Positions 9,158 through 25,766 of a stretch of 37,500 nt of DNA are shown here, one piece after another (position 1 is the stretch's first letter; each line of letters opens with the position of its first letter). Position numbers and translations under genes: made by a program. Under the pieces are notes generated by a model. That model worked only from the letters and a program-made list of their open reading frames with translations. It was not told where the DNA came from and searched no databases. This DNA is from Hyaloraphidium curvatum (taxonomy: Eukaryota > Monoblepharomycota > Hyaloraphidiomycetes > Hyaloraphidiales > Hyaloraphidiaceae), in the NCBI GenBank assembly GCA_025558095.1, contig JAIVFI010000001.1, forward strand, positions 37,501 to 75,000. Reading direction: 5' to 3'.

Positions 9158-10448
9158 ATGAAGGTGCGACGCACCGGACGCCCTCCGCCGCCCGTTCTGA
9201 ACCCCTGCCGGCACCAGGCCTTCACGATGCGCGCGCACGCGGCCGCGGCCCTCGCGCTCGCCATCGTCCTCGCCGCCCTACCCCGCACCGCCGCGCAGGA
9301 TCTGTCGCCCAACTCGCCGTTCACCTGGGTTTCGGGCCCGAAGTGGTGGGTTCGCCCGGCCCGGCCCGGCGCGCCGAGGAGGACTTCGTGACTCACACTG
9401 AACGGCAGCTCCCCCGGGGGATGGGGCGGAGGATGCTGCTGCACGCGCCCGGCTACCGTGCGAATGACGAAATACAAGACGAAAACCGCAGTCAAGACCG
9501 TCAAGCGGACGAGAACGACCACCCGCACCCTGACCGTCACCTCGCTGGTCCGGCTCCGCATGGAAGCCCGCCAGTTCGAGGAACAGCCCATCGAGCCGGT
9601 CGTCGCCAACCAAGAGATCCTTGATGCTCCGACCGAGGACCCGGTGCCATTAACCACGGCCGAGGACGAACCTGCCGTTGGGCCGCTCGAGTTCGACATC
9701 CTCCCAGGAACCCCGGCAGGGCCCCCCGACGACCAATCCCCCGCCGACACCTTCGGAAGCCACAACCTGTTTGCGCGCGACTACTGCCGGGCCTGTCCCC
9801 GCGGCGTGGTGCCCCGCCCCAGCGCCCGGGGCCGCACGGAACGCTGCTGCGTGACCAAGGTGACCAAGTACACCACGAAAACCAAGACGAAAACGCGCAC
9901 CAGGACAACCACGGTCAAGACGTCCACCAAGACGGTCACAAAGACGGTCACGCAGAGCGCCCGGGTCCGCCTCCCCGTTTTGGTGCAGACCGATAGCGGC
10001 ACCCCCGTTCCCGGTGCAATCGCGCAGCTCATCGGCCCTCCGCTCCCGACGAGGCGCCTTGTCGAGCGGCAGGAGGTCATCCTCGCAACCTGCACCACCC
10101 TCCCCGACGGCAGATGCACCTTGCTTGTCCCCACCAGCCTCGCGCCCGGCACGACGTATCGCATTGTTGTGGTCAACCGACCAGGCACCACGGTATTCCT
10201 GACCACCGATGCGTCGGGTAACCCGCCTGCTCCCACGGGCCCCGGAGGTACCTACCCCGTCGTCGTCAACGTGAGTCATCCTCCATGCACACGCATTCGC
10301 AGCACCGCGCTGACCGCATCTCCGTCGAACGCAGGAGGTCAGCACGCTGCGCCTCGGCCGCCGCGAGCTCGTCGCCCGGCGCGACGCGGATGGCAAGTTC
10401 CGGCGGGCGATCAAGGCCCTCGCGACGCCGTCACCCGAGATTTTCTAG
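9158..10448 (+). CDS. Secreted Lys/Thr-repeat protein A
   Basis: First of three paralogs in the window; the function is unknown. Four exons, 9158-9163, 9218-9345, 9409-10270 and 10335-10448, give 369 residues. The first exon encodes only Met-Lys. Exon 2 gives a signal peptide (AAAALALAIVLAALPRTAAQ) followed by DLSPN and WVSGPK. Exon 3 brings a Cys cluster with CCC, a basic/Thr tract (KTKTAVKTVKRTRTTTRT), an acidic Pro-rich linker and YCRACPRGVVPRP. A CC pair and a second tract (TKTKTKTRTRTTTVKTSTK) follow. Next is an Ig/Cna-B-like beta region (SGTPVPGAIAQLIGPP, with a CTTLPDGRC pair) typical of carboxypeptidase-regulatory-like folds. The last exon carries LGRRELVARR and RRAIKA, shared by all three. 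Predicted extracellular or cell-wall protein; the basic Thr tracts suggest a positively charged beta-strand or polyanion contact, which is inference. Confidence 0.78.
9164..9217 (+). other. Introns of Lys/Thr gene A
   Basis: Intron 1 (9164-9217, GTGCGA...TTCTGAAC...CCAG) sits after codon 2. Intron 2 is 9346-9408 (GTGGGT...ACTGAACGGCAG, phase 2). Intron 3 is 10271-10334 (GTGAGT...GCTGACC...GCAG, phase 0). All three have position- and phase-matched partners in genes B and C. Intron 1 is a multiple of three and open, so without the paralogs it could be read as coding. Confidence 0.62.
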
Positions 10449-10617
10449 GAGGGAGACGGTCTACCGGAGTTGTTTCGTTGCAAGGGAGACCACGGTATGC
10501 CTTTGGCAATGCGGATTCATGCTACTTAATCTTGTATGAACGGCGGTGTTCGGGAAAACGGTGAGGGTATTCACCAGAGGGAGGTCATCACCGGGATCCA
10601 GATTAGCATCCAAAACA
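10449..10617. other. Short intergenic stretch
   Basis: About 170 bp of 3' flank of gene A, more AT-rich than average. Nothing recognisable apart from the likely polyadenylation region. Confidence 0.35.
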
Positions 10618-10760
10618 TTTCATTCCATGTACGAGAAGCACATCTTCTTTTAATCTTCTATCTACACTTGCAGTCGCAACCCCGCTTCGGCATCTCGTCC
10701 GGACCATGTTCAAACCTGCGAACGCCCCTCGCGCACTCGCTCGCGCGCGCCGCCTCGAAC
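10618..10760 (-). pseudogene. Diverged fragment of a formin 3' end
   Basis: On the minus strand this piece matches the last codons and 3' flank of the formin gene (20296-20454). Shared blocks are TTCGAGG, AGGGGCGTTCG, GATGCCGAAGC, a TGCGA.TGCAAGT block and TTCTCGTACATGGAATGAAA. The formin ending MPKQGCECKF appears here as MPKRGCDCKCR. It is fused directly after the SCGY module, has internal deletions, and is not a gene by itself. It may derive from the neighbouring formin or from a paralog elsewhere. Confidence 0.62.
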
Positions 10761-10769
10761 GGAAACCGA

Positions 10770-11005
10770 TCACGCCCCGCAGCAGACCCCGGACGTCGAC
10801 TCATACAGCAGCGTGTAGCTGTACCCGCACGAGCTGCACTGCAGCCCGTGGAACTTGATCTCGACCCGAACCCGTTCCCCGCCGGGAGCCCCGCAAGTGA
10901 GATCGACAGGGCAGCGCCGCCGAGCGGGGAAGGAGGAGGTCCGTGAATCTGGCGTTTCAAGTCCACGGTGGTCTTGGAGAAGGGGTTGCCCCTCCCACAC
11001 GTCAT
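10770..11005 (-). pseudogene. SCGY module, copy 1 (frameshifted)
   Basis: Starts MTCGRGNPFSKTTVDL at 11005, matching copy 2 at 21714. It ends with LQCSSCGYSYTLLYESTS and VCCGA before TGA 10772-10770. Between them the frame is broken: copy 2 reads GGGTTCGGGTTCGAGATC where this copy has GGGTTCGGGTCGAGATC, one T missing. The start frame therefore does not reach the Cys-rich ending. The middle segment after TTVDL is also shorter than in copy 2. The module looks like the C-terminal part of a small secreted Cys-rich protein of unknown function. Confidence 0.6.
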
Positions 11006-11297
11006 CGCAGTCCTCTAAGGAGAGGATGGGGAGGGGTGGAGCGTAGCGGTGATGTGGCGTTCGCCGTTCCGCGCCGGCAGAAGACGCTGGGGCTCGCGCC
11101 CACCGTTGCCATTGGCGGATGGTGCGGAAACTTGATATACCTCCAGACAGGCGTACATCCAAATCTACCCTTTTCCTCTCTCGAAAGCAACGCGCAATTT
11201 ATGGCAAGGACGCTGGAGCCGATGGGGGAGGCTGCCTGCCGAGCGGTTCATGCGCCGACGAGAAGCTCGCAACCGACGCGCGCCCGCCCCGCCGCCT

Positions 11298-11445
11298 CTA
11301 GTCAGAGTTGCAGCTCTGGTAGGTTCCCGGGCACGCGTTTCCTGCCTTGGCGTACATGTCGAAACTTGAATACGAGACGTTGTCGTACGTTGTGCAGGCC
11401 GCACCGTAGAAGACGCACCCAGTAGGCTCGACCGATTTGAAGAGA
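11298..11445 (-). pseudogene. Truncated copy of the secreted Cys-rich gene
   Basis: From about 11441 to the TAG at 11300-11298 the minus strand repeats the last 48 codons of the gene at 20728-21425 almost exactly (KSVEPTGCVFYGAAC ... GTYQSCNSD). Only one residue differs by eye (CTTYDN against CTSYDN). The signal peptide, N-terminal Cys region and PAN-like first half are absent, and the sequence upstream is unrelated. Similarity continues through the 3' flank, so this is a genomic duplication rather than a domain shared between genes. Confidence 0.75.
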
Positions 11446-11532
11446 GTTTGGAGTCTGCAAGTACGTCTGGCCGACGCGAGTTCCCGATCATCAAATAGCT
11501 CTATAGTCTTTCTCCCGTTCAACAGCCTCGCT

Positions 11533-14529
11533 TCATCCGTTGAAGCTCATCATGCGCACCAGGTTCGCCACCTTCTCCTGCTTCTCCCCGTCCTCCGCCT
11601 CGCCTTCCGGATCCCCCAGCCCAGCAAACACGTTGTCGTTCTCGGGCGGGCCGGGCTCCGGCGCCGGATCCTCCCCGACGGCAGCGTCGCCGACGGTGTC
11701 CAAGGAATCGGCGGGCAGGAGGGGCGTAGCGGGGTGCGCGGGGCCTTGCTCGACGTCGGCAGGGGCAGGCTCGTCCGCCGCGGGCTTGGCGGGCGAAGGC
11801 CCTTCCTGCTCGTCCGCCGGCTTGCCCTCGTCCACCGGGGTGCCCTTCTCCGACCGCTTGTCGCCGTGATCGGGCACCGCCTCGAGCGGCGTGACCGCAT
11901 GGTCGCCCTCGGCGCCGTCCCGAATCGGGGAGCCTTCCGCCTTCTCCTCGCCTGCTTCGACCTTCTCCTCCCCGCCCCCAACCTCCTTCGCCTCCCCGCC
12001 CTCCCCGCCCGCCGCCTCCCCCACCGCCTCCTCCCCAGCCGGCGCCTGCTCCCCGCCCGCCCCCTCGGCCCACACCATCCCCTCCCTCGCCATCCCCGGC
12101 CCCGCCGTCCAGGCCGGGCTCTGGCTCCTCAGCCTGCCCTGCGACCCGCCGCGCGACAGCGGCGCCCGCGGTAGGGGCACCTTGTCCTTGGGCGGCGTCT
12201 GCGGGTGGGAAAAGTACCCCGCGCCCGGCGCCGCAGCCTGCTCCGCGGGCGGGCGCGCGGGGTGGGAAAAGTAGCCCGCCTGCACGGGCGCCGCGGCCCC
12301 GGCACCGACGCCCGCGAACCCGCCCGCCAGCGGCGCCCCCGCCCCGCTGCCCATGCTCGAGAAGCCCCCCGCCACCCCGGCCACGAGCCCGCGGTGCTGC
12401 GCCTCCCTCGCCTGCTGCACCCAGTTGGCGTACGTGGCCAGCTGTCCCTTGAGCTCCTCGCACCGCGCCCCGAGCTCCCTGTTGTCCTGCTGCGCCTGCC
12501 TCAGCTTCTGCGCCAGCGCGTCGCGCTCCTTCATCGCCGAGCCGAGCTCCACCCGCGTGCGGAGGAGCTCGTTCTCGCTCGCCCGGAGCCGGTCGTCGGG
12601 GTCCTGCGGGCTCAGCGCGCCCAGGATCGCCGAGAGGCCCGAGGGCTGCTTGCGCGCGCGGTACGTCGATACTTCGGCCTCGAGCTTGCGGATCCAGTCC
12701 CCGTCCTTGGTGATCTTGTCCCGCATGGCCGAGATGACGAGGTCCTGGTCCGCGATCCGCCGGTGCAGCGCCGAGACGTCGGCCGAGGGCGGCGCGGGCG
12801 GGCCGCCGGGCGACGCGGCGCCGCGGAGGTGCGCCGGGTTGAGCGGCGACCCGGACAGCTTGGCGATCTCCTCGGCGAGGAACTTGACCTGCTGGCGCTC
12901 GCGCTCCGCCTCGGCGTCGCTGTCCCGCCACCGCTTCTCGGCCTCGCGCGCGCGGCCGTCCGACTCGCTGAGCGCGTTGCGGAGCTCCTTCTCGCGGGCC
13001 TGGAACAGCCGCAGGTTGTCCCCCGAGTCGCGGATCAGCGCGTCCAGGTCGCCCTGAAGCAGGTCCCCGCGCTTGACGGCGTCGGCGAGCTGGTGCTTCA
13101 CCTCCGCCTGCGCGCGCTCGGCGCTCTGCCGCTTGGCCTTCTCGCCCTCGTACTCGCGCTTGAACGTCTCGAGCTGCCGGCGGAGCACCTCGATGGTCTG
13201 GTTGAACCCGGCCGCGGCGGCATCGGCCCGGTGGCGGGACGAGGTCTCGGCGGTCGCCGCGGCCTTTTTCTGCTCCAGGAGCTGCTGCGTCAGGTTGGCC
13301 AGCGTCGCCTGGAGCGCCGTGAGCTCGGCGCGCAGCTTGGGGTCCTCGGAGGGGGGCGCAGGGAGCACCTTGGGGGGAGGGGTGGGGCGGGGGGTCGGGT
13401 GCGAAGGGGGCGGGCGGGCCGTGGGGGGACGGGAGGCGGCCTGTGGGGAGCGCGCGGGGGAGGCGGATTGCGGGCGCTGCGCGTGGGCGTGTTGGGCGGC
13501 GGGGGGGGCTGCGGGGCGCTGGATCGGCTGGCTGGTCGGGCGCCGCGGCTGCTGGGCGGCCACGTGCTGGATGGGAGTCTGCTGAACGGGAGACTGGCGC
13601 TGCTGGGCTTGGGGCGGCCGCGCCTGAGGCGGTGCCACCCGCGCCTGATGCTGCACCGCGACCGGCCGCTGTTGGAGTCGCACAGCCTGGGCCGCCGGCG
13701 CCTGCTGCCTCGTCTGCACTTGCTGGGGAGCCTGCCTCGCCCTCGCGGGCGGCGACGCGTCCCTCGACGGCGGCACCGAGTGCGCCGGCACGCGGGCGTA
13801 GGCGGCCCTGCCCGCCGGCACCTCCTCTTCGTCCGTCTCGGAGGAGCCCGAGTCGTTGGGGTGCCTTTGCAGGGTCCGCTGCTGTTGCGCCGGGGCGAGC
13901 TGCCGCGCGGGCTGGCGCTGCGGCGGGGGCGCCGGCTGCCGCACCATCACCGGTTGGGCCACGGCTTCCGGGTACGCCTCCTCGTCCTCGAGGTACGGCT
14001 CGTCGTCGTAGCCGTCGCCGTCGTCCAACTGCTCCTCCCCGAACGCGGGATCACCGTCCCCAGCCGGCGGCTCCTCGTCCGTGCTGAACTCGACCAGGTC
14101 CTGCTCGGCGACCTCGACCTCCGCGCCGCCATCGCCGTCTTCCGCGTCCTCTTCCTCCGGATAGTCTTCCTCCGGATAGTCTTCCTCCGGGTAGTCCTCG
14201 GCGTAGTCCTCCGGGGCCCCCTCGTCGAAGCCGCCATTTTCCTCTGGCGCCTCCCCCTCGACGTCCTCCGGCATCTCCTCGCCCTCCCCCTCCGCAACCC
14301 CGACATCCCGCACATCCTCGATCGGCTCCTCGCGCGCATCGCCGTACGCCGCCTCGCCGGGGCTGTCTGCGCCGTTGGCGGGCGGAGCCGGCTGCCCGCC
14401 TTCCGCGGGCGCCATCGCCGCCGGGCGGGGCTTCCGCGCCGCGGGCCGCGCAGCGCCGCGCGGGGGGGATGAGGGCGACGCCGGCTTGCGGGCCGCCGAG
14501 GGCGCGCGGGCCGGCGCGGGCGTGGGCAT
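11533..14529 (-). CDS. Large acidic, Pro/Gln-rich coiled-coil protein
   Basis: Single-exon protein of 998 residues; no family recognised. Residues 1-60 are basic and Ala/Pro-rich. Residues 60-200 are strongly acidic and contain a tandem YPEED repeat (near 115-130) encoded by 18-nt direct repeats around 14150-14200. Residues 210-400 are Gln/Pro/Ala/Arg-rich and disordered. Residues about 405-560 and 610-740 form heptad-like coiled coils (ALQATLANLTQQLLEQKKAA, then ELLRTRVELGSAMKERDALA). The C-terminal 240 residues are Gly/Glu/Pro-rich with two GYFSHP motifs, and the protein ends in VRMMSFNG. The arrangement suggests a scaffold or cytoskeletal/septum-associated protein, which is inference. Transcribed away from the formin gene, whose start is about 630 bp away. 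Confidence 0.8.
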   Translation of the reverse strand: MPTPAPARAPSAARKPASPSSPPRGAARPAARKPRPAAMAPAEGGQPAPPANGADSPGEAAYGDAREEPIEDVRDVGVAEGEGEEMPEDVEGEAPEENGGFDEGAPEDYAEDYPEEDYPEEDYPEEEDAEDGDGGAEVEVAEQDLVEFSTDEEPPAGDGDPAFGEEQLDDGDGYDDEPYLEDEEAYPEAVAQPVMVRQPAPPPQRQPARQLAPAQQQRTLQRHPNDSGSSETDEEEVPAGRAAYARVPAHSVPPSRDASPPARARQAPQQVQTRQQAPAAQAVRLQQRPVAVQHQARVAPPQARPPQAQQRQSPVQQTPIQHVAAQQPRRPTSQPIQRPAAPPAAQHAHAQRPQSASPARSPQAASRPPTARPPPSHPTPRPTPPPKVLPAPPSEDPKLRAELTALQATLANLTQQLLEQKKAAATAETSSRHRADAAAAGFNQTIEVLRRQLETFKREYEGEKAKRQSAERAQAEVKHQLADAVKRGDLLQGDLDALIRDSGDNLRLFQAREKELRNALSESDGRAREAEKRWRDSDAEAERERQQVKFLAEEIAKLSGSPLNPAHLRGAASPGGPPAPPSADVSALHRRIADQDLVISAMRDKITKDGDWIRKLEAEVSTYRARKQPSGLSAILGALSPQDPDDRLRASENELLRTRVELGSAMKERDALAQKLRQAQQDNRELGARCEELKGQLATYANWVQQAREAQHRGLVAGVAGGFSSMGSGAGAPLAGGFAGVGAGAAAPVQAGYFSHPARPPAEQAAAPGAGYFSHPQTPPKDKVPLPRAPLSRGGSQGRLRSQSPAWTAGPGMAREGMVWAEGAGGEQAPAGEEAVGEAAGGEGGEAKEVGGGEEKVEAGEEKAEGSPIRDGAEGDHAVTPLEAVPDHGDKRSEKGTPVDEGKPADEQEGPSPAKPAADEPAPADVEQGPAHPATPLLPADSLDTVGDAAVGEDPAPEPGPPENDNVFAGLGDPEGEAEDGEKQEKVANLVRMMSFNG
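14150..14205 (-). repeat. 18-nt tandem repeat coding YPEED units
   Basis: About three copies of an 18-nt unit (on the plus strand TCCTCCGGATAGTCT with variants) encode repeated DYPEE within the acidic N-terminal part of the coiled-coil protein. In-frame unit length means that copy-number change would alter protein length only. Confidence 0.65.
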
Positions 14530-15157
14530 CCCGGGTGAGTTGTGGGAAGGGACCGCGAGACCCCAACATCAGGCACAGCCCGGGTCGGCCGCAGCGGATT
14601 CTCTGGCCGCCGTGTTTCGCCTCTGATTGGGCTGAAATGAGAGCAGTCAGAGGATGCAACGACCATCGCTCCCGTCCGGTATCGATCAGACCCGGATGTC
14701 GCTGTGTTGAACGCATGACGGGCGGGCCAACGGACTATGGAGGCAGCCCCTTCGGCTGCTTGAAAGGCATCCATCCAATCGTCCGAGAGGAACACTCAGC
14801 ACATAAAAGAGCCACTGGCCACGTAAAATCCGCACTCCACCAGTATGTTGGGCTGGATGGCGACCGAGCAGTCACCCGAAAGCCTGAACCCGAGGGCCTG
14901 CCGCCTCTTATCAAGCAGAAACAGTTCCAGGCGAAGAATTCGTTTCAATGGTTCTAGCACGGGGGATTGCAGGTTCCTTCGCCTTGAATGGCGGTTGATC
15001 TCTCCGCTCATCTGGGGAGGTGCGTTGAAAGATGAAAGTGAAGTCCCTACTCGCGCGCGAGCCGCGACCACGGACGCGGCCTATCGCGGGCCATGGGGCC
15101 GCCCGGGGCCGCGAGACGTTTGCCGGCATTGCGCCTGACCTCCTAGGAAGGCTGTCG
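14530..15157. promoter_or_regulatory. Divergent intergenic region
   Basis: Separates the coiled-coil gene (-) from the formin gene (+) and should contain both promoters. An in-frame ATG at 15032 would extend the formin by 42 Arg-rich residues. No RNA gene or repeat recognised. Confidence 0.4.
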
Positions 15158-18100
15158 ATGTGGAACCGGCTGTTCGGGTCGGGCAGCGGGCCGCCCCCGC
15201 CGGCGTCCCCGCAGCCGGTCGCCGCCCCAAATGGCAAAATCGCGATTGCCGGGGCGCCGCCGCGGCCGCCTCCCATGGACTATTTCGCACTGCCGCCGCG
15301 GGATGGCACGGGGACGCCGGGCACGCCGCCGCTGCCGCCGGTGCCGCGCGGCGGGTCGCCGCTGCCGCCGCCGCCGCCCGCGGACAAGGGGCCGGCTGCC
15401 AACGGCCTGGGGACGCCCAGCCTGGGCCCTAGCATGGGGTTAATTCCGGTGGCCAATCTGGGGAGCAATTTAAGCGCCACCTCGGGACCGCTGGCGGGAC
15501 AGCTGGCGGGACAGCTGCCCGGGGCAACGGACTCGTTCGGCTCTGCGGCCAGCCGGTCTCTGGGCCGCTCGGGCTCGAGCCGACCGCTGTCGGGCTTCTT
15601 CTCCAAGGCGCCGCTGCCGCTGCCGCCCCCGCCGCCCGCGTACGCGTCGCCGTTCGGCGGCCCGCCGCTGCTCACCTTCGACCCGTTCTTCCCCGACGAC
15701 GACGACCGCGAGGGCCCGCTGCCGCCGCCGCCCCGCGCCGCGCAGGGCTTCCTGTCGAAGCACCTGCACCTCGCCCGCGACGCCGCCTTCCGCGCCTTCG
15801 CCGCCTCGCTCGACGTCACCCGCGTGACGGACCGCGTGATCGCGTGCGGCGCCGTGGGGACCGGCCGCTCGGACCGCTCCTCGAGAAGGGTCAACGCCCG
15901 CGACCTGGCGCGCTTCCTCAACGCCCGCTACCCGGGCAAGTACATGGTCTTCAACCTGGCCTGGGGCGCCGAGCCGGCCTACGACCCCGCCGAGTTCGGC
16001 AACCAGGTGGTCTCGTTCGCCGGCACCGAGGGCGGCGCGCCCACGCACCTCACCCTGCGGCTGCTGTTCGACGTCGTGCGCGCCTTGCACGCGTGGACGT
16101 CGGCGGGGGAGGACCACGTGGCCGTGGTGCACTGCACCGACGGCATCGCGCGCACGGGACCCGCGGTCGCAGCCTATTTGGCGTTTTCCGACGCCGTGCC
16201 GACGGGGGTCGAGGCGCTCGAGTACTTTCTGGAGCGCAGGATCGGGACGGGGCGGAGCGAGGGGGAGAGCAACCTGCTCAACAGGATCAGGGAGGCGTTT
16301 GCCGGCGAGGGGATGATGGGGGCCAACGTGGTCGGCCTGATTCCCGGTGGGTGGCCGACCCACCCTGCGGCCGACAAACCTTTGCTCATCACCGCCCCCT
16401 TTCCAGCCCAATATCGGCGATACGTCCAGTACTTTGACGCCCTGCGCGCCACGGGCGGCACCGTACCCAACCAGGCCCAGCTCTCGCTGCTCCGCGTCGC
16501 CCTCAACCCGCTCCCCCGCGCCGGCCGCCGCCACGTCCGCCCCGGCATCGAGGTCTACGTGCGCGGCCGCCTCGCCTACTCGTCCGAGCTCGCCGCGCGC
16601 TCCCTGTCGGCCTTTTCCGAGCTGGGCGAAGGCGACGAGGACGACGCCCCCGTTTCGCCGACCACCTTCCGCGCCCCCGCCGCCTACGCCTCCTCCTCCG
16701 ACTCGGACGACGCACCCCGCCAGGTGCGCAACTTCCCCGACGTCGCGATCGACGGCGGCACCGCGGTCGTCCGCCCGCGGCGGCCGGTACCGGTGGACAA
16801 GGACGTGCTCCTCCGCGTCGTGGACCACACCCCGCGCGGCGGCAAGGCCACCGTGCTCACGTTCGGCTTCCACACGGGGTTCATGGTCCCCGGCACCATC
16901 CGCGTCTCGCTGCGCTCGGGCGAGCTGGACCTCGCGGGCATCCGCGGGCCGGCGGACGTGGACGCCAGGTTCGGGAGGGCGTTCGGGCTGGACCTGATCT
17001 TCGGGACCACCGCCGGCGCCGGCGCCGGCCCCGGGGCGGGGGCGGGGGCGGACGGGTACGGGGAGTTCCTGGACGGGTCGGCGTACAAGTGCCTTGCCAA
17101 GCTGACGAGGTACCACGTGGTGCGACCGGATGCGGCGTTCAAGGAGGCGCTCGAGGGGCAGTTCAAGGTGCTTCCCGTCGTCGGTGGGTCATCATCCCGC
17201 TGTGCACAGACCACAAGCTGACTGGCGTCCATTTGGCAGCCGACTACATCCTCCAGCGGACCAACAACACCATCCACGAGGCGCACGAGTGGATCGTCGC
17301 GCGGATGCCCTCGCTGCCCTTCTTTTCGCGCGTCGCCACGGATCTCGCCGCCATCGAACGCGACGCCCTCGAGGCGCGCGAGGCCCGGCGGCGGCGCCGC
17401 GCCGAGGGCGGGCGGTGGCGCTCCCGCGCGCTGGCGGCCGAGGACTCGTGGTCCGCCGACGACTCTTCCTCCGTCACGCGGTCGGTTTCGCGGTCGGGCA
17501 CGCCCTCCCGCTCGGGCAGCCCCGCGTCGGGCTTCTCCGACGTCGACTCGGAGGCGTGGGAGGAGCCCCCCGTGCGGTTCCGCGGCGGGCCGCTCCGGAT
17601 CCGCGGGCACGACAGCGGCGTCGGGACCTCGCGGTCCGATGGCAGCGCGGGGAGCAGCGGGCCCGGGGACGACGACGCGGCGACCCCCGTGGCGTCCGAG
17701 ATGCCGGCGGACCTGCTGATTCTGCGCAAGGCGGCCGGGTCGGGTGCGGGCGACGCGCTTTTCGGGGCGGGGGAGAGGGCCGCGGACGACCTCGAGGCGC
17801 TGAGGAGGGATCTGGTGAGCAAGTTCGGGAGGTTCGCGGTGTCGGGGGCCGGGGATGCGGAGCCGTCGGTGTGGGTGTCGAGGAAGCCCACCGCCGCCGG
17901 GAGGAGGAGGAAGTCGGGCGGGCAGCCGGCGCCGGCGCCGAGGGTGCCCTCGCCGCAGTACTCGCTCCCTTCGGACGACGAAGGCCCCGGATCCGAGGTC
18001 TCGGCCAGCGTTTCCGCGTCGGCTTCGGCGTCGGCGGACGAGTCGTACGCGCCCGAGGAGGTCGAGGCGCCGCGCAAGGTGTGGATCCGCAGGGTACCCA

Positions 18101-20409
18101 AGGCCGCGTCGGACACGCAGGCCACGCTGCCCGGGATCGCCGAAACCTCGCCTGCGGGGGTGGACGAGGGAGCGGCGGAGGTGGAGGTTGGCGAAGGACC
18201 TGTGCCGGGCGCGAACGTTCCCCCTGCGCCGCCACCGCCGCCGATCCTTGCTTCCAACATACCCCCGCCTCCTCCGCCGCCTCCGATCCTGCCTTCGAAT
18301 GTACCGCCGGCTCCCCCTCCGCCTCCGCTGCTCCCCTCCAACATCCCTCCCGCACCGCCGCCGCCACCGATGCCGGGATCCAACATCCCGCCTCCCCCTC
18401 CTCCGCCTCCGATACCGGGATCGAGCATACCCCCTCCACCGCCTCCGCCAGCGATGCCTGGTTCCTCGATCCCGCCCCCTCCACCCCCGCCGCCCATGCC
18501 GGGCGGCGGTCCTCCTCCGCCGCCGCCACCACCTCCTGTCGCCGGCGGACCTCCTCCTCCGCCGCCTCCGCCCCCGGGGCCGGGCGGCCCGCCGCCGCCG
18601 CCCCCTCCCCCCGGAAGCGGCCCGCCCCCTCCGCCTCCGCCGCCCGGTGGGGGCCCTCCCCCGCCTCCAGGGGCTCCCTCGCCGCCGCCCGTCGCGGCGC
18701 CCGAGCCGAAGCTCCGCGCCAAGGCGAAGCTGCACTGGCAGGAGATCCGCGAGGAATCGCACCGCATCCGGGACTCGATCTGGTTCTCGGCGCCCAAGCC
18801 CGCCCGGGCCGACGGCGAAGAAAGCGGGGACGAGGAGGAGGACCCCCCGGTGCCGCTGACGGTGGAGCTGGACGTGCAGAAGTTCGAGGACCTGTTCTGC
18901 GTCGCGCCGCCCGTCAAGGGAGCCAAGAAGCCGGTCGAGGTCGCGCGCGCCGAGTCGCCCAAGGCGCCGCAGGCGGTGTCGCTGCTCGACGGGCGCAGGG
19001 GCCAGAACGTTTCCATCGGCGCGGCCATGTTCAAGCGGACCAAAGGCCTGGGGCCCGCCGAGATCCGCAAGGCGCTGGCGGATTTCGACGACGCGTTCGT
19101 GTCCCCCGAGGACTGCGTGGCCCTCGAGCCGCTGCTGCCCAACCCCGAGGAGCGCAGCGCGATCCAGGGCTACCTGGGTTCCGGGGACGACCCCGACGGC
19201 GCCAAGCTGGGCCAGCCGGAGCAGTTCATGGCCGAGATGATGAAGGACCCCAACGTGCCGCACTACGTGGCCGCCTTCATCTACAAGGCCAGCCTGGCGG
19301 CGGAGCCGGACCAGATCGAGGTGGACCTGAACATGGTCATCGAGGCGTGCGGGAAGCTGAGGCGGAGCGAGACGCTGAGGAGGGTCGTGATCGCGGCCAG
19401 GGACATTGGCAACCTGACCAACTGTGTGTTGCTCTCGCGCTGCCGTGTCGGTGCCGGCTAACGTTACCCCGGTTCGATTACAGACGAGTACTCGGGCCGC
19501 TCGACCAACCAGTGGGGCCAGCCGCAGAAGCGCGCCGTGGCCGTCAAGATCGAGTCGCTCGTGCGGCTGCGGGACGTCAAGTCGGCCGACGGCCGGATGA
19601 CGCTCATGAACTACCTGGTCGAGATGGTCTCGCGGACGGACCCGGCCGTCGCCGAGCTGCCCAAGGAGTTTGCGGAGCTCAAGAAGGTCCGGATGGTCGG
19701 GATCCGCGACCTCGTTGCGCAGTACGCTCTGCTCCGCAAGAACCTCGGCTCCTTGTCGTCGTACCGCTACCGCGAGGTCAAGGGCGAGGACAAGCCGGCG
19801 TTCGAGGCCAAGTTCGCCGCGTTCCTCGCCCAGGCCAAGGAGCGGCTGGACCGTCTGGGCGCCAAGATCGAGGAGACCAAGGAGGCCTGGCTGCACACGG
19901 CGGCCTACTTCCTCGAGGACGTGGAGGACTACGACGACGTCTGGGAGGGACCCGGATCGGGCAAGCCCGCTGCCTCGGGGGAGGAGGGCGAGAACCAGGC
20001 CAAGCAGCCCGAGGCGCTATTCGCGTCGCTGGACCTCTTCATGAGCTACGTCGCCGAGGCCGTGCAGCAGAACAAGAAGCGTGCCGACGACGAGGCGCGC
20101 CGGATCAAGCGGGCCAAGGAGGCCGAGGAGCGGGCCAAGAAGGGGATGCCGCCCGAGGAGGAAAAGGGCGGGGCCGGGGTGCGCAAGCTGCGGCACCGGA
20201 CCGTCTCGGGGGAAAAGGCCAAGATGTCGTTCTCGGACGTGGTCATGGAGGCGGCGCTCAAGGCGCGGGCGAACCCCAAGCTGGGCTTGGAGTTGTTCGA
20301 GGAGGCGCCGCGCGTGCGCAAGGGGCGTTCGGGCGGGTTGAGCAAGGTCGGGACGGGCGTGTGTCCAGAGTGTCAGATGCCGAAGCAGGGATGCGAGTGC
20401 AAGTTCTAG
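15158..20409 (+). CDS. PTEN-C2-FH1-FH2 formin
   Basis: Predicted actin nucleator of 1691 residues. Exons: 15158-16346, 16407-17183, 17240-19423, 19484-20409. Order: Pro-rich N-terminus; PTEN-like phosphatase domain (about 205-370) with P-loop HCTDGIARTG (Cys near 326, CX5R intact); C2 domain beginning QYRRYVQYFDAL and holding beta strands such as ATVLTFGFHTGFM; Ser-rich linker; FH1 with long polyproline runs (about 980-1140); FH2 (from KLHWQEI, with GNLTN and the lasso/knob-type spacing) to about 1560; Lys/Glu coil; tail CPECQMPKQGCECKF. This layout is known from plant class II formins, where the PTEN part is usually catalytically dead but binds phosphoinositides. In PTEN an Asp lies in the loop before the P-loop. 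Here that loop reads VSFAGTEGGAP, so the general acid is not obvious. The start could instead be ATG 15032. Confidence 0.85.
16347..16406 (+). other. Introns of the formin gene
   Basis: Three introns: 16347-16406 (GTGGGT...TTCCAG, 60 nt, in frame), 17184-17239 (GTGGGT...GCTGACTGG...GGCAG, 56 nt) and 19424-19483 (GTGTGT...GGCTAACG...TACAG, 60 nt). All three are phase 1. The second and third bypass stop codons. The first is supported by continuity of the PTEN/C2 junction (IPAQYRRYVQYF). Confidence 0.75.
18210..18700 (+). repeat. Polyproline FH1 coding tract
   Basis: Dense CCN repeats encode about a dozen blocks of 5-9 prolines separated by Gly/Ile/Ser-Asn linkers. This is the profilin-actin delivery region of a formin. 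The composition also produces very long spurious open frames on both strands here. Confidence 0.85.
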
Positions 20410-20727
20410 ACAGATGGATGGATGGAGATGTGTTTCTCGTACATGGAATGAAAAGATTGGTCGAACGTTGCAGTTGGGGTCCGGGACCTCGGCCCTGTCT
20501 CAAAAACCCCCGCGCGCGACGGACAGGTCCCAACAGGACTTCGGTCCCTATTGAGGGCCTACCAACACGACCAATCTCCTCAAGGCACTCCTGAGATACA
20601 TCGCATGATTGACTTGGCCTACTGGCGCGGCATCGTCTGGCTTTGCCTTTAATTCCCCGCTCAGATCGATGGCTGGTGTCAGGGAAAGTTCGGGGGCCTC
20701 CCTCAGTCGCGAGTACCGCGCTCAACC
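20410..20727. other. Formin 3' flank and promoter of Cys-rich gene
   Basis: The first 45 bp, up to the segment TTCTCGTACATGGAATGAAA, are the part duplicated at 10618-10637 and probably belong to the formin 3' UTR. The rest should hold the promoter of the secreted Cys-rich gene. No further feature seen. Confidence 0.4.
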
Positions 20728-21425
20728 ATGAAGGCGCTCCTTGCCTGGCTGTTCCTCGCCGCGGCCGTAGCCGCCGTGCTCGTGCCCGCCAGGCGTGCTG
20801 CCGGCCCGCGCCGTGCGGCCCATGCCGACCGCCTTCCTGACGTTCCCCGTCCCCAAGCGCCGCCCCTGCTGGCAAGAGGTAGTGGCAAGAGGGGAAGACC
20901 TCTTGCCACCTGCCGAATCCCGCGCGGTGTGTTACCGCCGCAGCTGTAACGATTGCGATGCGGATCAATATTGGTGAAGGAACCGGCACGCTCCGCGCCA
21001 GAACCCCCCCTGACGCCCTTAACCCGCTCGATCCCGACATCCTGGACTCCCCGCTGGTTCCCAGCGAGTTCGGGTACCCCGGCACCCCCGAAGACAGCAT
21101 TGCCTGCGTCACCCACGCCTCCTCCTCACACCTCTACCGGCGCTACGGCCCGGCCGGCTACAGCCTGTGCCCCGGCCTTGTGATGTGCTGCGGTGGCTAC
21201 CTGGAAGAACATCCCGACCTGACCACCGCGGCGTCCTGCGCCGACGCTTGCAACTGCAACAACAACTGCAAGTACATGCTCTTCAAATCGGTCGAGCCCA
21301 CTGGGTGCGTCTTCTACGGTGCGGCCTGCACAAGTTACGACAACGTCTCGTATTCAAGTTTCGACATGTACGCCAAGGCAGGAAACGCGTGCCCGGGAAC
21401 CTACCAGAGCTGCAACTCCGACTAG
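20728..21425 (+). CDS. Small secreted Cys-rich protein, PAN/apple-like
   Basis: Likely secreted protein of about 176 residues; function unknown. ATG 20728 gives a hydrophobic leader (MKALLAWLFLAAAVAAVL). The frame then needs two introns: 20782-20857 (GTGCCC...TTCCTGACG...CCAAG; a donor six bases earlier is equally possible) and 20974-21064 (GTGAAG...CCCTGACG...CCCAG). The joined product has about 18 Cys, including RSCNDCDADQYC, VMCCGG, ADACNCNNNCKYMLF, GCVFYGAAC and the ending GTYQSCNSD. The spacing of the NNNC/F/CVFY/SYDN part recalls PAN/apple modules, which bind protein or carbohydrate. The C-terminal third is duplicated at 11298-11445. Without the introns the frame is broken, so a recent pseudogene is the alternative. 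Confidence 0.6.
20870..20908 (+). repeat. Direct repeat plus perfect hairpin in coding sequence
   Basis: TGGCAAGAGG occurs at 20870-20879 and again at 20883-20892. The second copy pairs perfectly with CCTCTTGCCA at 20899-20908 around a 6-nt loop. It lies in exon 2 of the Cys-rich gene. Confidence 0.7.
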
Positions 21426-21778
21426 AGGCGGCGGGCTCGCGTCGGTTGCAAGCTTCTGGCCGGCGCATGAACCGCTCGGCATTCGGCGTCGCCCATCCGC
21501 TCCAGCGTCCTTGCCATTAATTGCGCGTTGCTTTCGAGAGAGGAAAAGGGTAGATTTTGTATGTACGCCTGTCTGGAGGTAGATCAAGTTTACGCACCAT
21601 CCGCCTATGGTAACGGTGGGCGCGAGCCCCAGCGTCTTCTGCCGGCGCGGAACGGCGAACGCCACATCACCGCTACGCTCCACCCCTCCCCATCCTCTCC
21701 CTAGAGGACCACGATGACGTGTGGAAGGGGCAACCCCTTCTCCAAAACCACCGTGGACTTATACGACGCCGGCGGCAA

Positions 21779-21929
21779 CAGGGCCCGCCCGACTGAAAAC
21801 GACGGATAGAAGGATACCAGGGATACTTGAAAGATAAATCCTAGGGTACAAAGGATACCAAGGATATTCGAAGGATATTGACGGATATTGAAGGATAAGC
21901 GGCCGCCGTTTTCAGTCGGGTGGGCCCTG
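21779..21929. mobile_element. MITE-like element with 27-bp terminal inverted repeats
   Basis: The ends are imperfect inverted repeats: left 21779-21805 starts CAGGGCCCGCCCGACTGAAA, and the reverse complement of 21903-21929 starts CAGGGCCCACCCGACTGAAA; 25 of 27 positions agree. GCAA flanks both ends (21775-21778 and 21930-21933), a probable 4-bp target duplication. The 97-bp interior is AT-rich with repeated GGATATTGA/GGATACC units and has no coding capacity. The duplicated locus at 11 kb lacks the element, giving an empty-site comparison. The superfamily is not assignable from this alone; CAGGG ends resemble hAT, but hAT duplications are 8 bp. Confidence 0.72.
21820..21898 (+). repeat. Short GGATA(T/C) tandem repeats inside the element
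   Basis: Around seven diverged 10-12 nt units of the AAGGATATTGA / AAGGATACCA type, standing out by AT content from the GC-rich surroundings. Confidence 0.6.
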
Positions 21930-22441
21930 GCAACGCCGTTCCCAGCTTCACGGACCTCCTGATACCCGGTACGGCGGCGCTGCCCTAGCTACTCGATCCC
22001 GCTGGCCGGGTTCCCGGCGGGCAACGGGTTCGGGTTCGAGATCAGGTTCCACGGCTGCAGTGCAGCTCGTGCGGGTACGGCTACACCGTGCTGTACTATT
22101 CCACGCCCGAGGTTTGCTGCGGGACGTGATCGGCTTTGAGTCGGAGCGACCGTGACGCAGGGATGCGACGGCATGCCCTGTCCTCCCTCCTCCACATGCC
22201 AGAACACCGCACCGCCCGGCAGATCGCTTGCCATTGTCGTCGAGGGCCGACGGATCAACGGACACGGACAGAAGGTCGCCTGCACCGTACGATCCGCTCG
22301 TCTCGTTCCGGAGCGCGGTCGCGCTCGGTAGCGATCCGCCCGAACCCATGTTGAATCCACACGGACCGCGAACCGCACGAGGAGAAAACCACAACTCGTA
22401 GTGAAGAGAGACATGCACGCCCCTCTAGACGACTTGCAGAC

Positions 22442-22558
22442 TCCAACCCAGACGCAGAAGATCCAAGCCGCGGCCGGCTGCAAGATACACAATTCCTTCC
22501 GGGACGATTTCCAACCGTCCAACCCAGACGGAGCAGGAGATCCAACCCGCGGTGCCGG
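22442..22558. repeat. Imperfect direct repeat between SCGY module and gene B
   Basis: TCCAACCCAGACG followed by a GATCCAA.CCGCGG block occurs at 22442-22477 and again at 22518-22558, 76 bp apart. It lies in the 3' flank shared by two converging genes. Confidence 0.55.
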
Positions 22559-22567
22559 ACGCGCGGG

Positions 22568-23830
22568 CTAGAACGCATCCGGCGCCGGGGTGGCCCTTGC
22601 CTTGATCGCGCGGCGGAAGTTCCCGTCCGCTTCGCGGCGGGCGAGCAGCTCGCGGCGGCCCAGGCGGATGGTGGAGGGGTTCTGCGATCGGGAACGGGGT
22701 CAGCGGGGCGTGCGACGGGGCGGGGGCGGGAAAACGCACGTCGACGACGATCGGGTAGGTCTCGCCGTTCGGCGGCGGTGGCGGTTGCCCGAAGGTGTTG
22801 GTCTGGAAGAACGTGCTGGTGAGGAGGAAGCGGAGAATGTACTGGGTGGTCGGCAGGAGCGGCCGCCGGACGAGGATGGTGCACAGGCCGCTAATGTTGG
22901 TGATGCAGAACGTCACCACGTTATCCTGGCGTTCGGCGAGGCGCCGGGCGGTCGGAGAGGGGCCGACGAGATCCACCCGGGCGTTTGCCACGGGCTGCCC
23001 AGCGTCGTTCCGGACCGAGACGAGCATCCGGACAGCGGCGCTCTGCGTGATCGTTTTGCTGGTCGTCCTGGTCACGATCTTGACGGTGGTGGTCTTGACG
23101 CGGGTCGTGGTCCTGGTCTTTGTCACGGTGGAAGTAACCCTTGTGATGCAGCACCTCCGGCCGGACCCGCCGGGCCGGGGTACGACGCCGCGGGGGCAGG
23201 CCTGGCAGTAGTCGCGGGCAAAGAGGGCGTGCGCATCGTCGTCGCCGGCGTCGACGGGCGATTGGTCGTCGGCTGGGCCCATGTCGCGCTCGGAGAGGGC
23301 ATCGGAGTCGACGGCTTGGGCGGGCTCCTCGTCGACCGGAGGGGGCGCCGGCAGGTCCTCGGCGGGGATCTCCAGGACCGCCTGAGCAGCGACCGCCGGC
23401 TCGACGTCCTCGTCCCTTGCTTCGAGGCGGCGCCGGACCAGCGAGGTGACGGTCACGGTGCGGGTGGTCGTCCTGGTGCGCTTGACGGTCTTGACCGCGG
23501 TCTTTGTCCTGTACCTTGTCACGCGCACGGTCGTGGCTTTCTTGCAGCAGCAATTCGCGCCGGCCCAACCGGACCCGGAGGAGCTGCGATGGGGGTGAGC
23601 GACGCCGCCCGCTGTGAGGGGGATCGCGCGGCACGCACCACGAGGGGCCCTTGACCCAGGCCAGCCCTGTGTTGCCGTTGGGCGAGATGTCCTGTGCCGC
23701 GGCGGGGGGCGCCGACAGGGCGATGGCCAGCGCGAGGGCGGCCGCGGCCAGGAGATACGGGGCGGGCTGTGCGGGCGGCGACGGGTGAGCGGCGCGTGGG
23801 CCCCGGTTCCGGGGCGCTTACGGTGCGCAT
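22568..23830 (-). CDS. Secreted Lys/Thr-repeat protein B
   Basis: Second paralog, 364 residues. Exons: 23830-23822, 23766-23639, 23583-22740, 22681-22568. Exon 1 codes only Met-Arg-Thr before a 55-nt intron with a strong GTAAGC donor. Exon 2 supplies the signal peptide (YLLAAAALALAIALSAPPAA) and QDISPNG. Exon 3 has GWAGANCCCKK, the first basic/Thr tract (TKTAVKTVKRTRTTTRTVTV), an acidic linker, YCQACPRGVVPRPGGSG with CC, and a second tract (TKTRTTTRVKTTTVKIVTRT). It also carries a beta-type region (AGQPVANARVDLVGPSP, CITNISGLC pair). Exon 4 ends LGRRELLARREADG and RRAIKARATPAPDAF. Lies downstream of, and convergent with, the SCGY copy 2, the same neighbour order as gene A in inverted orientation. 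Confidence 0.78.
23767..23821 (-). other. Introns of Lys/Thr gene B
   Basis: Introns at 23767-23821 (GTAAGC...CACAG), 23584-23638 (GTGCGT...CGCAG, phase 2) and 22682-22739 (GTGCGT...GCTGACC...GCAG, phase 0). Without intron 1 the signal-peptide frame has no ATG and meets a TAA, so it is required. Confidence 0.72.
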
Positions 23831-24470
23831 CTTCCGCGGCTATCCGAGCGCGCGGCTTCGCGGGCCAGGAGGGCACTGGTGCTGTGGGGGAGCGCGATGA
23901 CGAGATCGCCTGCGGGTCGAGGGCGGGTCCACCACAGGAATTTCCGCTCGCGCAGACTCAGGTGGATGGGCTGGTGAAGCGGCACCCGTGAACTGTTGCT
24001 GACCCGTTCGACAGCGCCTCTCGAAAGCGCTTCTGACCGGACAAATCAGATCAATTAGACATGGTTTTCCATGCCTAGCTCGGGGAACGAGACTGTCCGG
24101 CTTCCATCGCCCGGTGCCTTATAGACGCTTTGCCTGTCTGGCGACCACCCATCCCCGCGCAACCCCGCCCGCACCGCTCGTAATCCAGATACCCCGCGAT
24201 CGACCCTGTCTGCCTGCTCCGGGTATCCCTGCGCTATTTCTCCGCGCCGGCCGCGCCGGCATCTCGGTTTGCCCGCCGATCCCGCCCGTTTGCCACACCT
24301 GGACCACAACCCCGGCGCACGAACAAGCACATCCATCGGCGATCGAAACGTCTATCGCATAGTGAGGATCTAAGTGTCAGCAGTATACAGGCCAATAAAG
24401 TACACATCATCGGAGCGGGGTCGGGCCCGACGGAAGCGAGCCGCAGCAACCAGCGCCGGGCCCCGAACGC
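23831..24470. other. Intergenic between genes B and C
   Basis: 640 bp separating the 5' end of B from the 3' end of C; it should hold the promoter of B. The CACGTG motif seen upstream of A and C is not found here. No gene or repeat recognised. Confidence 0.4.
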
Positions 24471-25766
24471 CTAGAACACCACGGGCGCGGGCGTCGCCCT
24501 GGCCTTGAGCGCGCGGCGGTACCTCCCGTCGGCGCCCTTGCGCGCGATCAGCTCGCGGGCGCCGAGGCGGGCGCTGCTCTCGGGCTGCGGAGGAAGGGCG
24601 GATGGGTCAGTTGTGGCGGATAGCGGGCAGAAAGGCGAGGCTACTCACGACGACGATGGGGTAGACACCCCCGCTCGGCGGCGGCGGCGGCTGGCCGCTC
24701 GCGTCGGTGGGGATCGGGATGTCCGGGGCGCCCGGAGTGAGAATGGCGTAGTTCGAGTTTGGGGTGAGGGGTGTCGGGTACAGGAGGTTGCAGATGCCGG
24801 TGGTGGGGTGTGTGTAGCAGAAGGCCCAGATGTCGCGCTTGCCCAGCCGGCCGATGGGGGGCCCGACGAGCTGCACGAGGGCGTTGCCAACGGGCGTGCC
24901 GTTCTGCGTCTTGACCTGTAATCGCATGGAGGAGGGTCAGGAATGGAGCCGGGGCATCGCGGGGGCATGTCTGACCTGGACCGGGATCCGCACCGCCGCG
25001 CTCTGTGATGCGGTCACCGTGATCGTCTTTGTCGCCGTCTTGACCGTCGTCGTCTTGATCCGCGTGGTCGTCTTGGTCCGAGTGGTCGTGGAGGTAACTT
25101 TGGTGACGCAGCACCTCTCCCCAGACCCGCTGGGGCGGGGCGCGACGCCGCGGGGGCAAGCCTGGCAGTAGTTCCGTGCAAACAGCCTGCGTTCCTCGGC
25201 GTCGACAGGGGACTGCTCGACGGGGGCCTCGTCCAAGCCGAGCGGCGCGACGGCGGGCTCCTCATCGGCCGGAGCAGGGGGCAGTGGCTCCTCCGTGGGC
25301 GTCTCGAGGATCTCCTCAGCGGGATCCACGGCCTCCTCGGGCTCCTCGTCGTCCTGCCTCGCCTCGAGCCGGCGCCGCACGAGCGTCGTCGTGGTGACCG
25401 TGCGCGTCAACGTTCTCGTCCGCTTCACCGTCTTGACCGCCGTCTTGGTCTTGTACTTTGTCACCCGCACCGTCGTCGGGCGCCGGCAGCAGCACCCCAC
25501 TCCGCCCCACGCGCTGGAGGAGCTGCATCCGCCGTGAGTCACCTCCTCGCGCCCGGGGACAACCCGCCGACCCACCACTGCGGGCCCTTGACCCATCCCG
25601 AGCCCGAGTGTTCGTTCGGCGAGACATCCTGCGCGGCGGTGTGGCGCGCGGAGAGGGAGATGGCGAGCGCGAGCGCCAGCGCGGCGAGCGCGAGGAGGGA
25701 CGGCGGCTGCAGCGCGGCGGGCGTCAGCGTTGGGAGCGGTGCGCGGAAGGCGCGCCGGACCTTCAT
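24471..25766 (-). CDS. Secreted Lys/Thr-repeat protein C
   Basis: Third paralog, 354 residues, with one intron more than A and B. Exons: 25766-25761 (Met-Lys), 25706-25576, 25522-24976, 24915-24649, 24584-24471. Signal peptide SLLALAALALALAISLSARH followed by TAAQDVSPN. Then GWVKGPQ, a Cys cluster (AWGGVGCCCRR), the first tract (KTKTAVKTVKRTRTLTRTVT) and an acidic linker. YCQACPRGVAPRPSGSG with CC follows, then a second tract (TTTRTKTTTRIKTTTVKTAT). The beta-type region (NGTPVGNALVQLVGPP, Cys pair CYTHPTTGIC) lies after the extra intron. The C-terminus is LGARELIARKGADG and RRALKARATPAPVVF. Divergent from the CxxC protein gene, with duplicated E-box-like sites between them. Confidence 0.78.
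25707..25760 (-). other. Introns of Lys/Thr gene C
   Basis: Introns at 25707-25760 (GTCCGG...CGCTGACG...TGCAG, weak donor, 54 nt in frame), 25523-25575 (GTGGGT...TGCAG), 24916-24975 (GTCAGA...CCTGACC...TACAG, unique to C, phase 0) and 24585-24648 (GTGAGT...ACTGACC...CGCAG). Positions 1, 2 and 4 match introns 1-3 of A and B. Confidence 0.68.

What the first reader, a model, noticed from the sequence alone, without database searches (positions are those of the whole stretch)
9158..25766. Three-member family of secreted Lys/Thr-repeat proteins with conserved gene architecture
Genes A (9158-10448), B (22568-23830) and C (24471-25766) share an ordered plan. They have a 2-3 codon first exon, signal peptide, (Q)D(L/I/V)SPN, CCC cluster, basic/Thr tract KTKTAVKTVKRTRTTTRT, acidic linker, a YCxACPRGVxPRP...CC motif, a second K/R-T tract, a beta domain with one Cys pair, and a C-terminal LGxREL-ARR/K...ADG..RRA.KA.ATP block. 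Intron positions and phases match. Acidic and basic segments alternate inside one exported protein, and dibasic sites (VKR, RRR) flank the first tract. This could be a self-assembling wall or adhesion protein, or a polyanion-binding protein; I know no named family with this layout.
Basis: partly seen in the sequence, partly recalled or inferred. Interest (0 to 1): 0.75.

Follow-up and report, generated by a model that had tools for sequence, protein, structure and literature searches.

The report
Expanded family of fungal surface proteins
The three genes are real and encode secreted modular proteins, the short form of a family of about forty genes in this GC-rich fungus that is biased towards contig ends; they are probably cell-surface or matrix proteins, and lineage-specific families of this general sort are common in fungi.

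Summary
Genes A, B and C lie at the stated coordinates, with a 2-3 codon first exon, signal peptide and matching intron phases; C has one extra intron. They are not a trio: this genome holds 11 full members on six contigs, all with exactly 10 mature cysteines, the same order of charged blocks and the same last exon. About 28 more loci carry a related Cys + Thr-(Lys/Arg) front half, some fused to SdrD_B-type, fasciclin or Ser/Thr-rich back halves. The beta region is predicted as a transthyretin/CarboxypepD_reg-type sandwich (pLDDT 84; Z 8-9.6). No Pfam, NCBIfam or PDB sequence match is significant for the whole protein. The loci lie nearer contig ends than chance.

Most likely they are secreted wall or matrix proteins: basic Thr tracts bind polyanionic matrix and the sandwich is displayed. 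Invariant (L/M/R)xxR sites on both sides of the acidic linker suggest Kex2-type processing (inferred). Family and fold are computed; function is untested. No fungal proteome collection was available, so spread beyond this genome is unknown. Interest is moderate.

The parts
9158..10448 (+). Gene A: exons 9158-9163, 9218-9345, 9409-10270, 10335-10448; 369 aa
   Evidence: spliced model; purifying selection
22568..23830 (-). Gene B: exons 23822-23830, 23639-23766, 22740-23583, 22568-22681; 364 aa
   Evidence: the micro-exon is required to reach the signal peptide in frame from that ATG
24471..25766 (-). Gene C: exons 25761-25766, 25576-25706, 24976-25522, 24649-24915, 24471-24584; 354 aa; one extra intron 24916-24975
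9434..9553 (+). A: CCC cluster (9434-9442) and first Thr-(Lys/Arg) tract, 37 residues
   Evidence: tract charge +7 to +12 in all 11 members
9560..9574 (+). A: MEAR|Q, candidate processing site 1 before the acidic linker (Arg99 invariant in 11)
   Evidence: cleavage inferred
9572..9766 (+). A: acidic linker
   Evidence: net -11 to -17 in all 11 members; boundaries
9767..9850 (+). A: LFAR|D site and second Cys module LFARDYCRACPRGV...CC
   Evidence: module found at about 39 loci in the genome
9851..9961 (+). A: second Thr-(Lys/Arg) tract, 37 residues
9962..10270 (+). A: transthyretin-like beta sandwich with one Cys pair
   Evidence: AlphaFold2 pLDDT 84.3; VIA-align Z up to 9.6; Foldseek
10335..10448 (+). 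A: C-terminal basic block LGRREL.ARR.ADG.FRRA.KA.ATP on its own exon
   Evidence: 11 matches genome-wide at E<=10, all in core members; most conserved part, mean pairwise identity 0.70
23433..23552 (-). B: CCC cluster and first tract
23226..23414 (-). B: acidic linker
23148..23225 (-). B: LFAR|D site and second Cys module
23037..23147 (-). B: second tract
22740..23036 (-). B: beta sandwich
   Evidence: aligned with A for the model
25375..25494 (-). C: CCC cluster and first tract
25186..25356 (-). C: acidic linker
25108..25185 (-). C: LFAR|N site and second Cys module
24997..25107 (-). C: second tract
24649..24915 (-). C: main part of the beta sandwich, after the extra intron

Best explanation
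A, B and C are the short form of a large modular family of secreted surface or matrix proteins in a GC-rich fungus. The protein enters the secretory pathway by its signal peptide and forms up to five disulfides (10 Cys). A Kex2-type protease probably cuts at the (L/M/R)xxR sites on both sides of the acidic linker. The two basic Thr-(Lys/Arg) tracts, each after a Cys cluster, then hold the protein to polyanionic wall or matrix polymers, while the transthyretin-like sandwich is displayed for protein or glycan contacts. Shown by computation: gene structure, family size, charge plan, predicted fold, bias to contig ends. Inferred: secretion, disulfides, cleavage, wall retention, display.
For: Every one of the 11 members has exactly 10 mature Cys and the order basic tract / acidic linker / basic tract / beta / basic C-terminus. 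Front-half relatives carry SdrD_B, CarboxypepD_reg and SpaA domains, fasciclin E 2.5e-13, and long Ser/Thr repeats, typical of extracellular matrix or adhesion proteins. The beta domain is transthyretin/CNA-B-like and profile-matches the relatives' beta domains (hhalign probability 96.7, E 4.7e-10). There is no hydrophobic C-terminal tail, so no sign of a GPI or membrane anchor. Arg99 and Arg168 are invariant, and the site before the second Cys module is L-x-[AP]-R-[HND] at most of the 39 loci. PMC6258133 reports an LXXR preference of yeast Kex2. The 39 loci are biased to contig ends (21 of 33 clusters within 100 kb against 10.3 expected, p 4.5e-5), and the contig ends near the C37 and C12 members carry TTAGG telomere repeats; surface-protein families often sit in such regions (general knowledge).
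Against: No protein-level, expression or localisation evidence. Tracts and linker have pLDDT under 50. P2 of the proposed sites is mostly Ala or Pro, not Lys/Arg, so Kex2 cleavage is not assured. Counts of LxxR motifs come from related sequences and are not independent. Thr alternation in the tracts is only weakly above shuffles in single sequences. A shared fold shows no function.
Confidence: 0.5

Rival explanations
1. Charge-balanced precursor of cationic peptides: the acidic linker is a pro-piece that neutralises the basic Cys/Thr tracts during transit, as in prepro-defensins, and the released basic Cys modules or C-terminal block act as antimicrobial or signalling peptides.
For: Acidic and basic blocks are of similar size in all 11 members, the linker is bounded by invariant Arg sites, and the C-terminal block is the most conserved part.
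Against: Total charge stays +8 to +19, so the balance is partial. A folded beta domain is not needed for such a peptide. No repeated peptide cores. Relatives carry adhesion-type domains instead.
Confidence: 0.17
2. Structural polyampholyte: uncut proteins assemble head to tail by opposite charges and disulfides into a wall layer or matrix.
For: Conserved + - + 0 + block order and even Cys count in all 11.
Against: Invariant Arg at the linker borders has no obvious role here; no assembly evidence.
Confidence: 0.18
3. Secreted effector family acting on another organism, diversified near chromosome ends.
For: Secreted, Cys-rich, duplicated, biased to contig ends.
Against: Host and lifestyle unknown; purifying selection, no sign of diversifying selection; the most conserved parts are the basic tracts and the C-terminal block.
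Confidence: 0.1

Closest known systems
SdrD_B / CarboxypepD_reg / SpaA (Cna_B-type) transthyretin-like domains of surface proteins (Pfam PF17210, PF13620, PF17802)
   Same: predicted fold; a relative in this genome matches these families significantly; core domains match weakly
   Different: core domains do not reach a confident Pfam match; no conserved isopeptide Lys; the short form has a single domain behind Cys/Thr-Lys modules
Subtelomeric fungal surface-protein families (FLO, ALS, EPA type; general knowledge, and titles/abstracts of PMC6277891, PMC8305976)
   Same: expanded secreted family biased to contig ends
   Different: no GPI signal, no adhesin domain found by Pfam, basic Thr-(Lys/Arg) tracts instead of long mucin-like stalks in the short form
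Kex2-processed wall protein Ywp1 (PMC6258133) and Kex2-processed repeat proteins (PMC6339444)
   Same: secreted proprotein with probable Arg-terminated processing sites
   Different: sites are mostly LxAR/LxPR rather than KR/RR; no repeated peptide cores; no sequence relation shown
Fasciclin (FAS1) matrix proteins
   Same: one front-half relative, at C4, carries a FAS1 domain
   Different: A, B and C have no FAS1 domain

Membership tests
Transthyretin-like / CarboxypepD_reg fold | seven-strand beta sandwich | tested here: met
   AlphaFold2 pLDDT 84.3, seven strands; Z 8.0-9.6 to transthyretin-like chains. A common arrangement; shows fold only
Transthyretin-like / CarboxypepD_reg fold | confident sequence-profile match to the Pfam family | tested here: not met
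   no match for A; CarboxypepD_reg matches 3 of 11 core domains, best E 0.00059; homology supported only through relatives
HIUase / transthyretin family proper | C-terminal YRGS motif | tested here: not met
   A, B, C end the domain with YPVVV/YPIVV; the motif is recalled from general knowledge
Cna_B pilin-type domain | conserved Lys for an internal isopeptide bond | tested here: not met
   A and B have no Lys in the beta domain
Kex2-processed repeat proteins (KEPs) | repeated peptide cores between KR/RR sites | tested here: not met
   no repeated cores in the three proteins; definition from PMC6339444
GPI-anchored wall proteins | hydrophobic C-terminal GPI signal | tested here: not met
   C-termini are charged...RRAIKALATPSPEIF, by inspection
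FLO/ALS/EPA adhesins | their adhesin domains | tested here: inconclusive
   no Pfam match for A, B, C, which does not exclude a distant relation
Secreted fungal protein | signal peptide actually used and cleaved | not testable with these tools
   hydrophobic N-terminus ending in A(A/G/D)-(A)Q-type sites in all 11 by inspection; no predictor or proteomics here

The most novel reading that the evidence does not exclude
A Kex2-type protease excises the acidic linker and so unmasks two cationic Cys/Thr-(Lys/Arg) modules that assemble on polyanions: a charge-shielded, protease-activated matrix protein family with no described counterpart.
Probability: 0.18. Interest if true: 0.6.

Novelty: new variant of a known kind. 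Interest (0 to 1): 0.38.

Why it matters
It defines an unnamed family by testable marks: 10 cysteines, two Cys clusters each followed by a 37-residue Thr-(Lys/Arg) tract in A, B and C, invariant Arg sites around an acidic linker, and a private C-terminal block. It shows one front half joined to several known matrix domains, which gives GC-rich fungal genomes a handle on a group of surface proteins that standard domain libraries miss.

Tried and rejected
Pfam, NCBIfam and PDB sequence searches with A, B, C and with all 11 members gave no significant whole-protein relative. Scans of prokaryote genomes and viral contigs found no relative, as expected for a fungal family; no fungal proteome was available. 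Attempts to name the organism failed: the rRNA family search returned no answer, IFT57 gave only a sub-threshold match, and the hydrophobin search was uninformative because no control rang. The window shows fungal-type domains (Fungal_trans; formin FH2 and an MFS/TRI12-like transporter). A strict Thr alternation as a beta-strand signature was considered; shuffles support it only weakly in single sequences. Simple local tandem triplication was rejected: in the tree B groups with the member on C37 and A with C, at modest support. Literature searches found no description of this family.

Full report
Observation. Introns are 53-64 nt with GT-AG ends and phases 0, 2, 0; gene C has one more phase-0 intron inside the beta region. 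The proteins are 369, 364 and 354 aa, and B and C are 56-60% identical to A. A simple Nei-Gojobori count gives dN/dS near 0.42-0.49 for each pair, so these are constrained reading frames, not chance.

Micro-exon. All 11 members begin with a short first exon followed by an intron at the same place. Six have MK| with donor GTGCGN or GTGCCG, C has MK|GTCCGG, B and the C37 member have MRT|GTAAGC, and two have seven codons ending in ASK. In B, C37, C32 and three C5 members, reading on from that ATG goes off frame or meets a stop, so the intron is needed; in A, C and three others both readings stay open.

Family size. The last exon finds exactly 11 places in the genome, and each belongs to a full member on C1, C5, C12, C32, C36 or C37. 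All 11 have exactly 10 cysteines after the signal peptide and the charge order basic tract (+7 to +12), acidic linker (-11 to -17), second Cys module with tract (+10 to +16), beta domain, basic C-terminus (+4 to +7). The C-terminal block (mean pairwise identity 0.70) and the two tracts (0.64-0.65) are the most conserved parts; linker (0.37) and beta domain (0.39) the least. The second Cys module finds 39 places in all. The site in front of it reads L-x-[AP]-R-[HND]-L-C at most of them. In the tree the window genes fall with C37 and C32, the C5, C12 and C36 genes form the other side; B is nearest C37 and A nearest C, at modest support.

What the relatives carry. The open frames at the other loci hold a beta domain with a D.dGdG.y.pg.D loop, SdrD_B/CarboxypepD_reg/SpaA repeats (C44), a fasciclin domain (C4, E 2.5e-13), or long Ser/Thr repeats. 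These frames were read from single exons without full gene models, so their exact domain order is provisional.

Fold. AlphaFold2 on the beta domains of A, B and C gives pLDDT 84.3 and seven strands. VIA-align puts transthyretin-like, S-layer and pilin beta domains at Z 8-9.6, and Foldseek lists the same kinds. A profile of the 11 core domains matches the relatives' beta domains (probability 96.7, E 4.7e-10). Pfam matches to core domains stay weak (best CarboxypepD_reg E 0.00059). The first 184 residues of the exon-3 model of A, that is tracts, linker and Cys modules, have pLDDT under 50.

Place in the genome. Of 33 independent clusters, 21 lie within 100 kb of a contig end against 10.3 expected (p 4.5e-5). 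The ends of C37 and C12 carry TTAGG repeats; the eight other sampled ends do not, so not every contig end is a telomere.

Reading. Shared domains and anatomy point to secreted surface or matrix proteins. The processing step rests on two invariant arginines, on LxxR-type sites at the linker borders and on the reported LXXR preference of yeast Kex2 (PMC6258133); motif counts come from related sequences and cannot be taken as independent. Function, location and partners are untested. The organism could not be named; domains in the window are fungal.

Noticed in passing
window 10763-11444 and 21279-22136: Inverted segmental duplication, 84-97% identical in pieces, between A and B. The B-side copy holds the end of a secreted-looking Cys-rich gene (about 20950-21430, + strand); the A-side copy is truncated. 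It looks much younger than the A/B split.
   Followed up: partly
L054 (C4:9000-11700) 2469-2699: A protein resembling that Cys-rich gene (YRRYGPA...C motif) lies beside the fasciclin-bearing front-half relative, so the two families may co-occur.
   Followed up: no
L030 (C34) and L031 (C46): Two front-half relatives on different contigs give the same protein segment: a recent duplication or an assembly duplicate near contig ends.
   Followed up: no
L050 and L052 (ends of C37 and C12): The telomere repeat is TTAGG rather than the TTAGGG reported for most Basidiomycota tested; a hint to the organism.
   Followed up: partly
L044 (C1:1-400): Contig C1 begins in a stretch that looks like a Ty3/gypsy reverse transcriptase by eye; not tested.
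   Followed up: no
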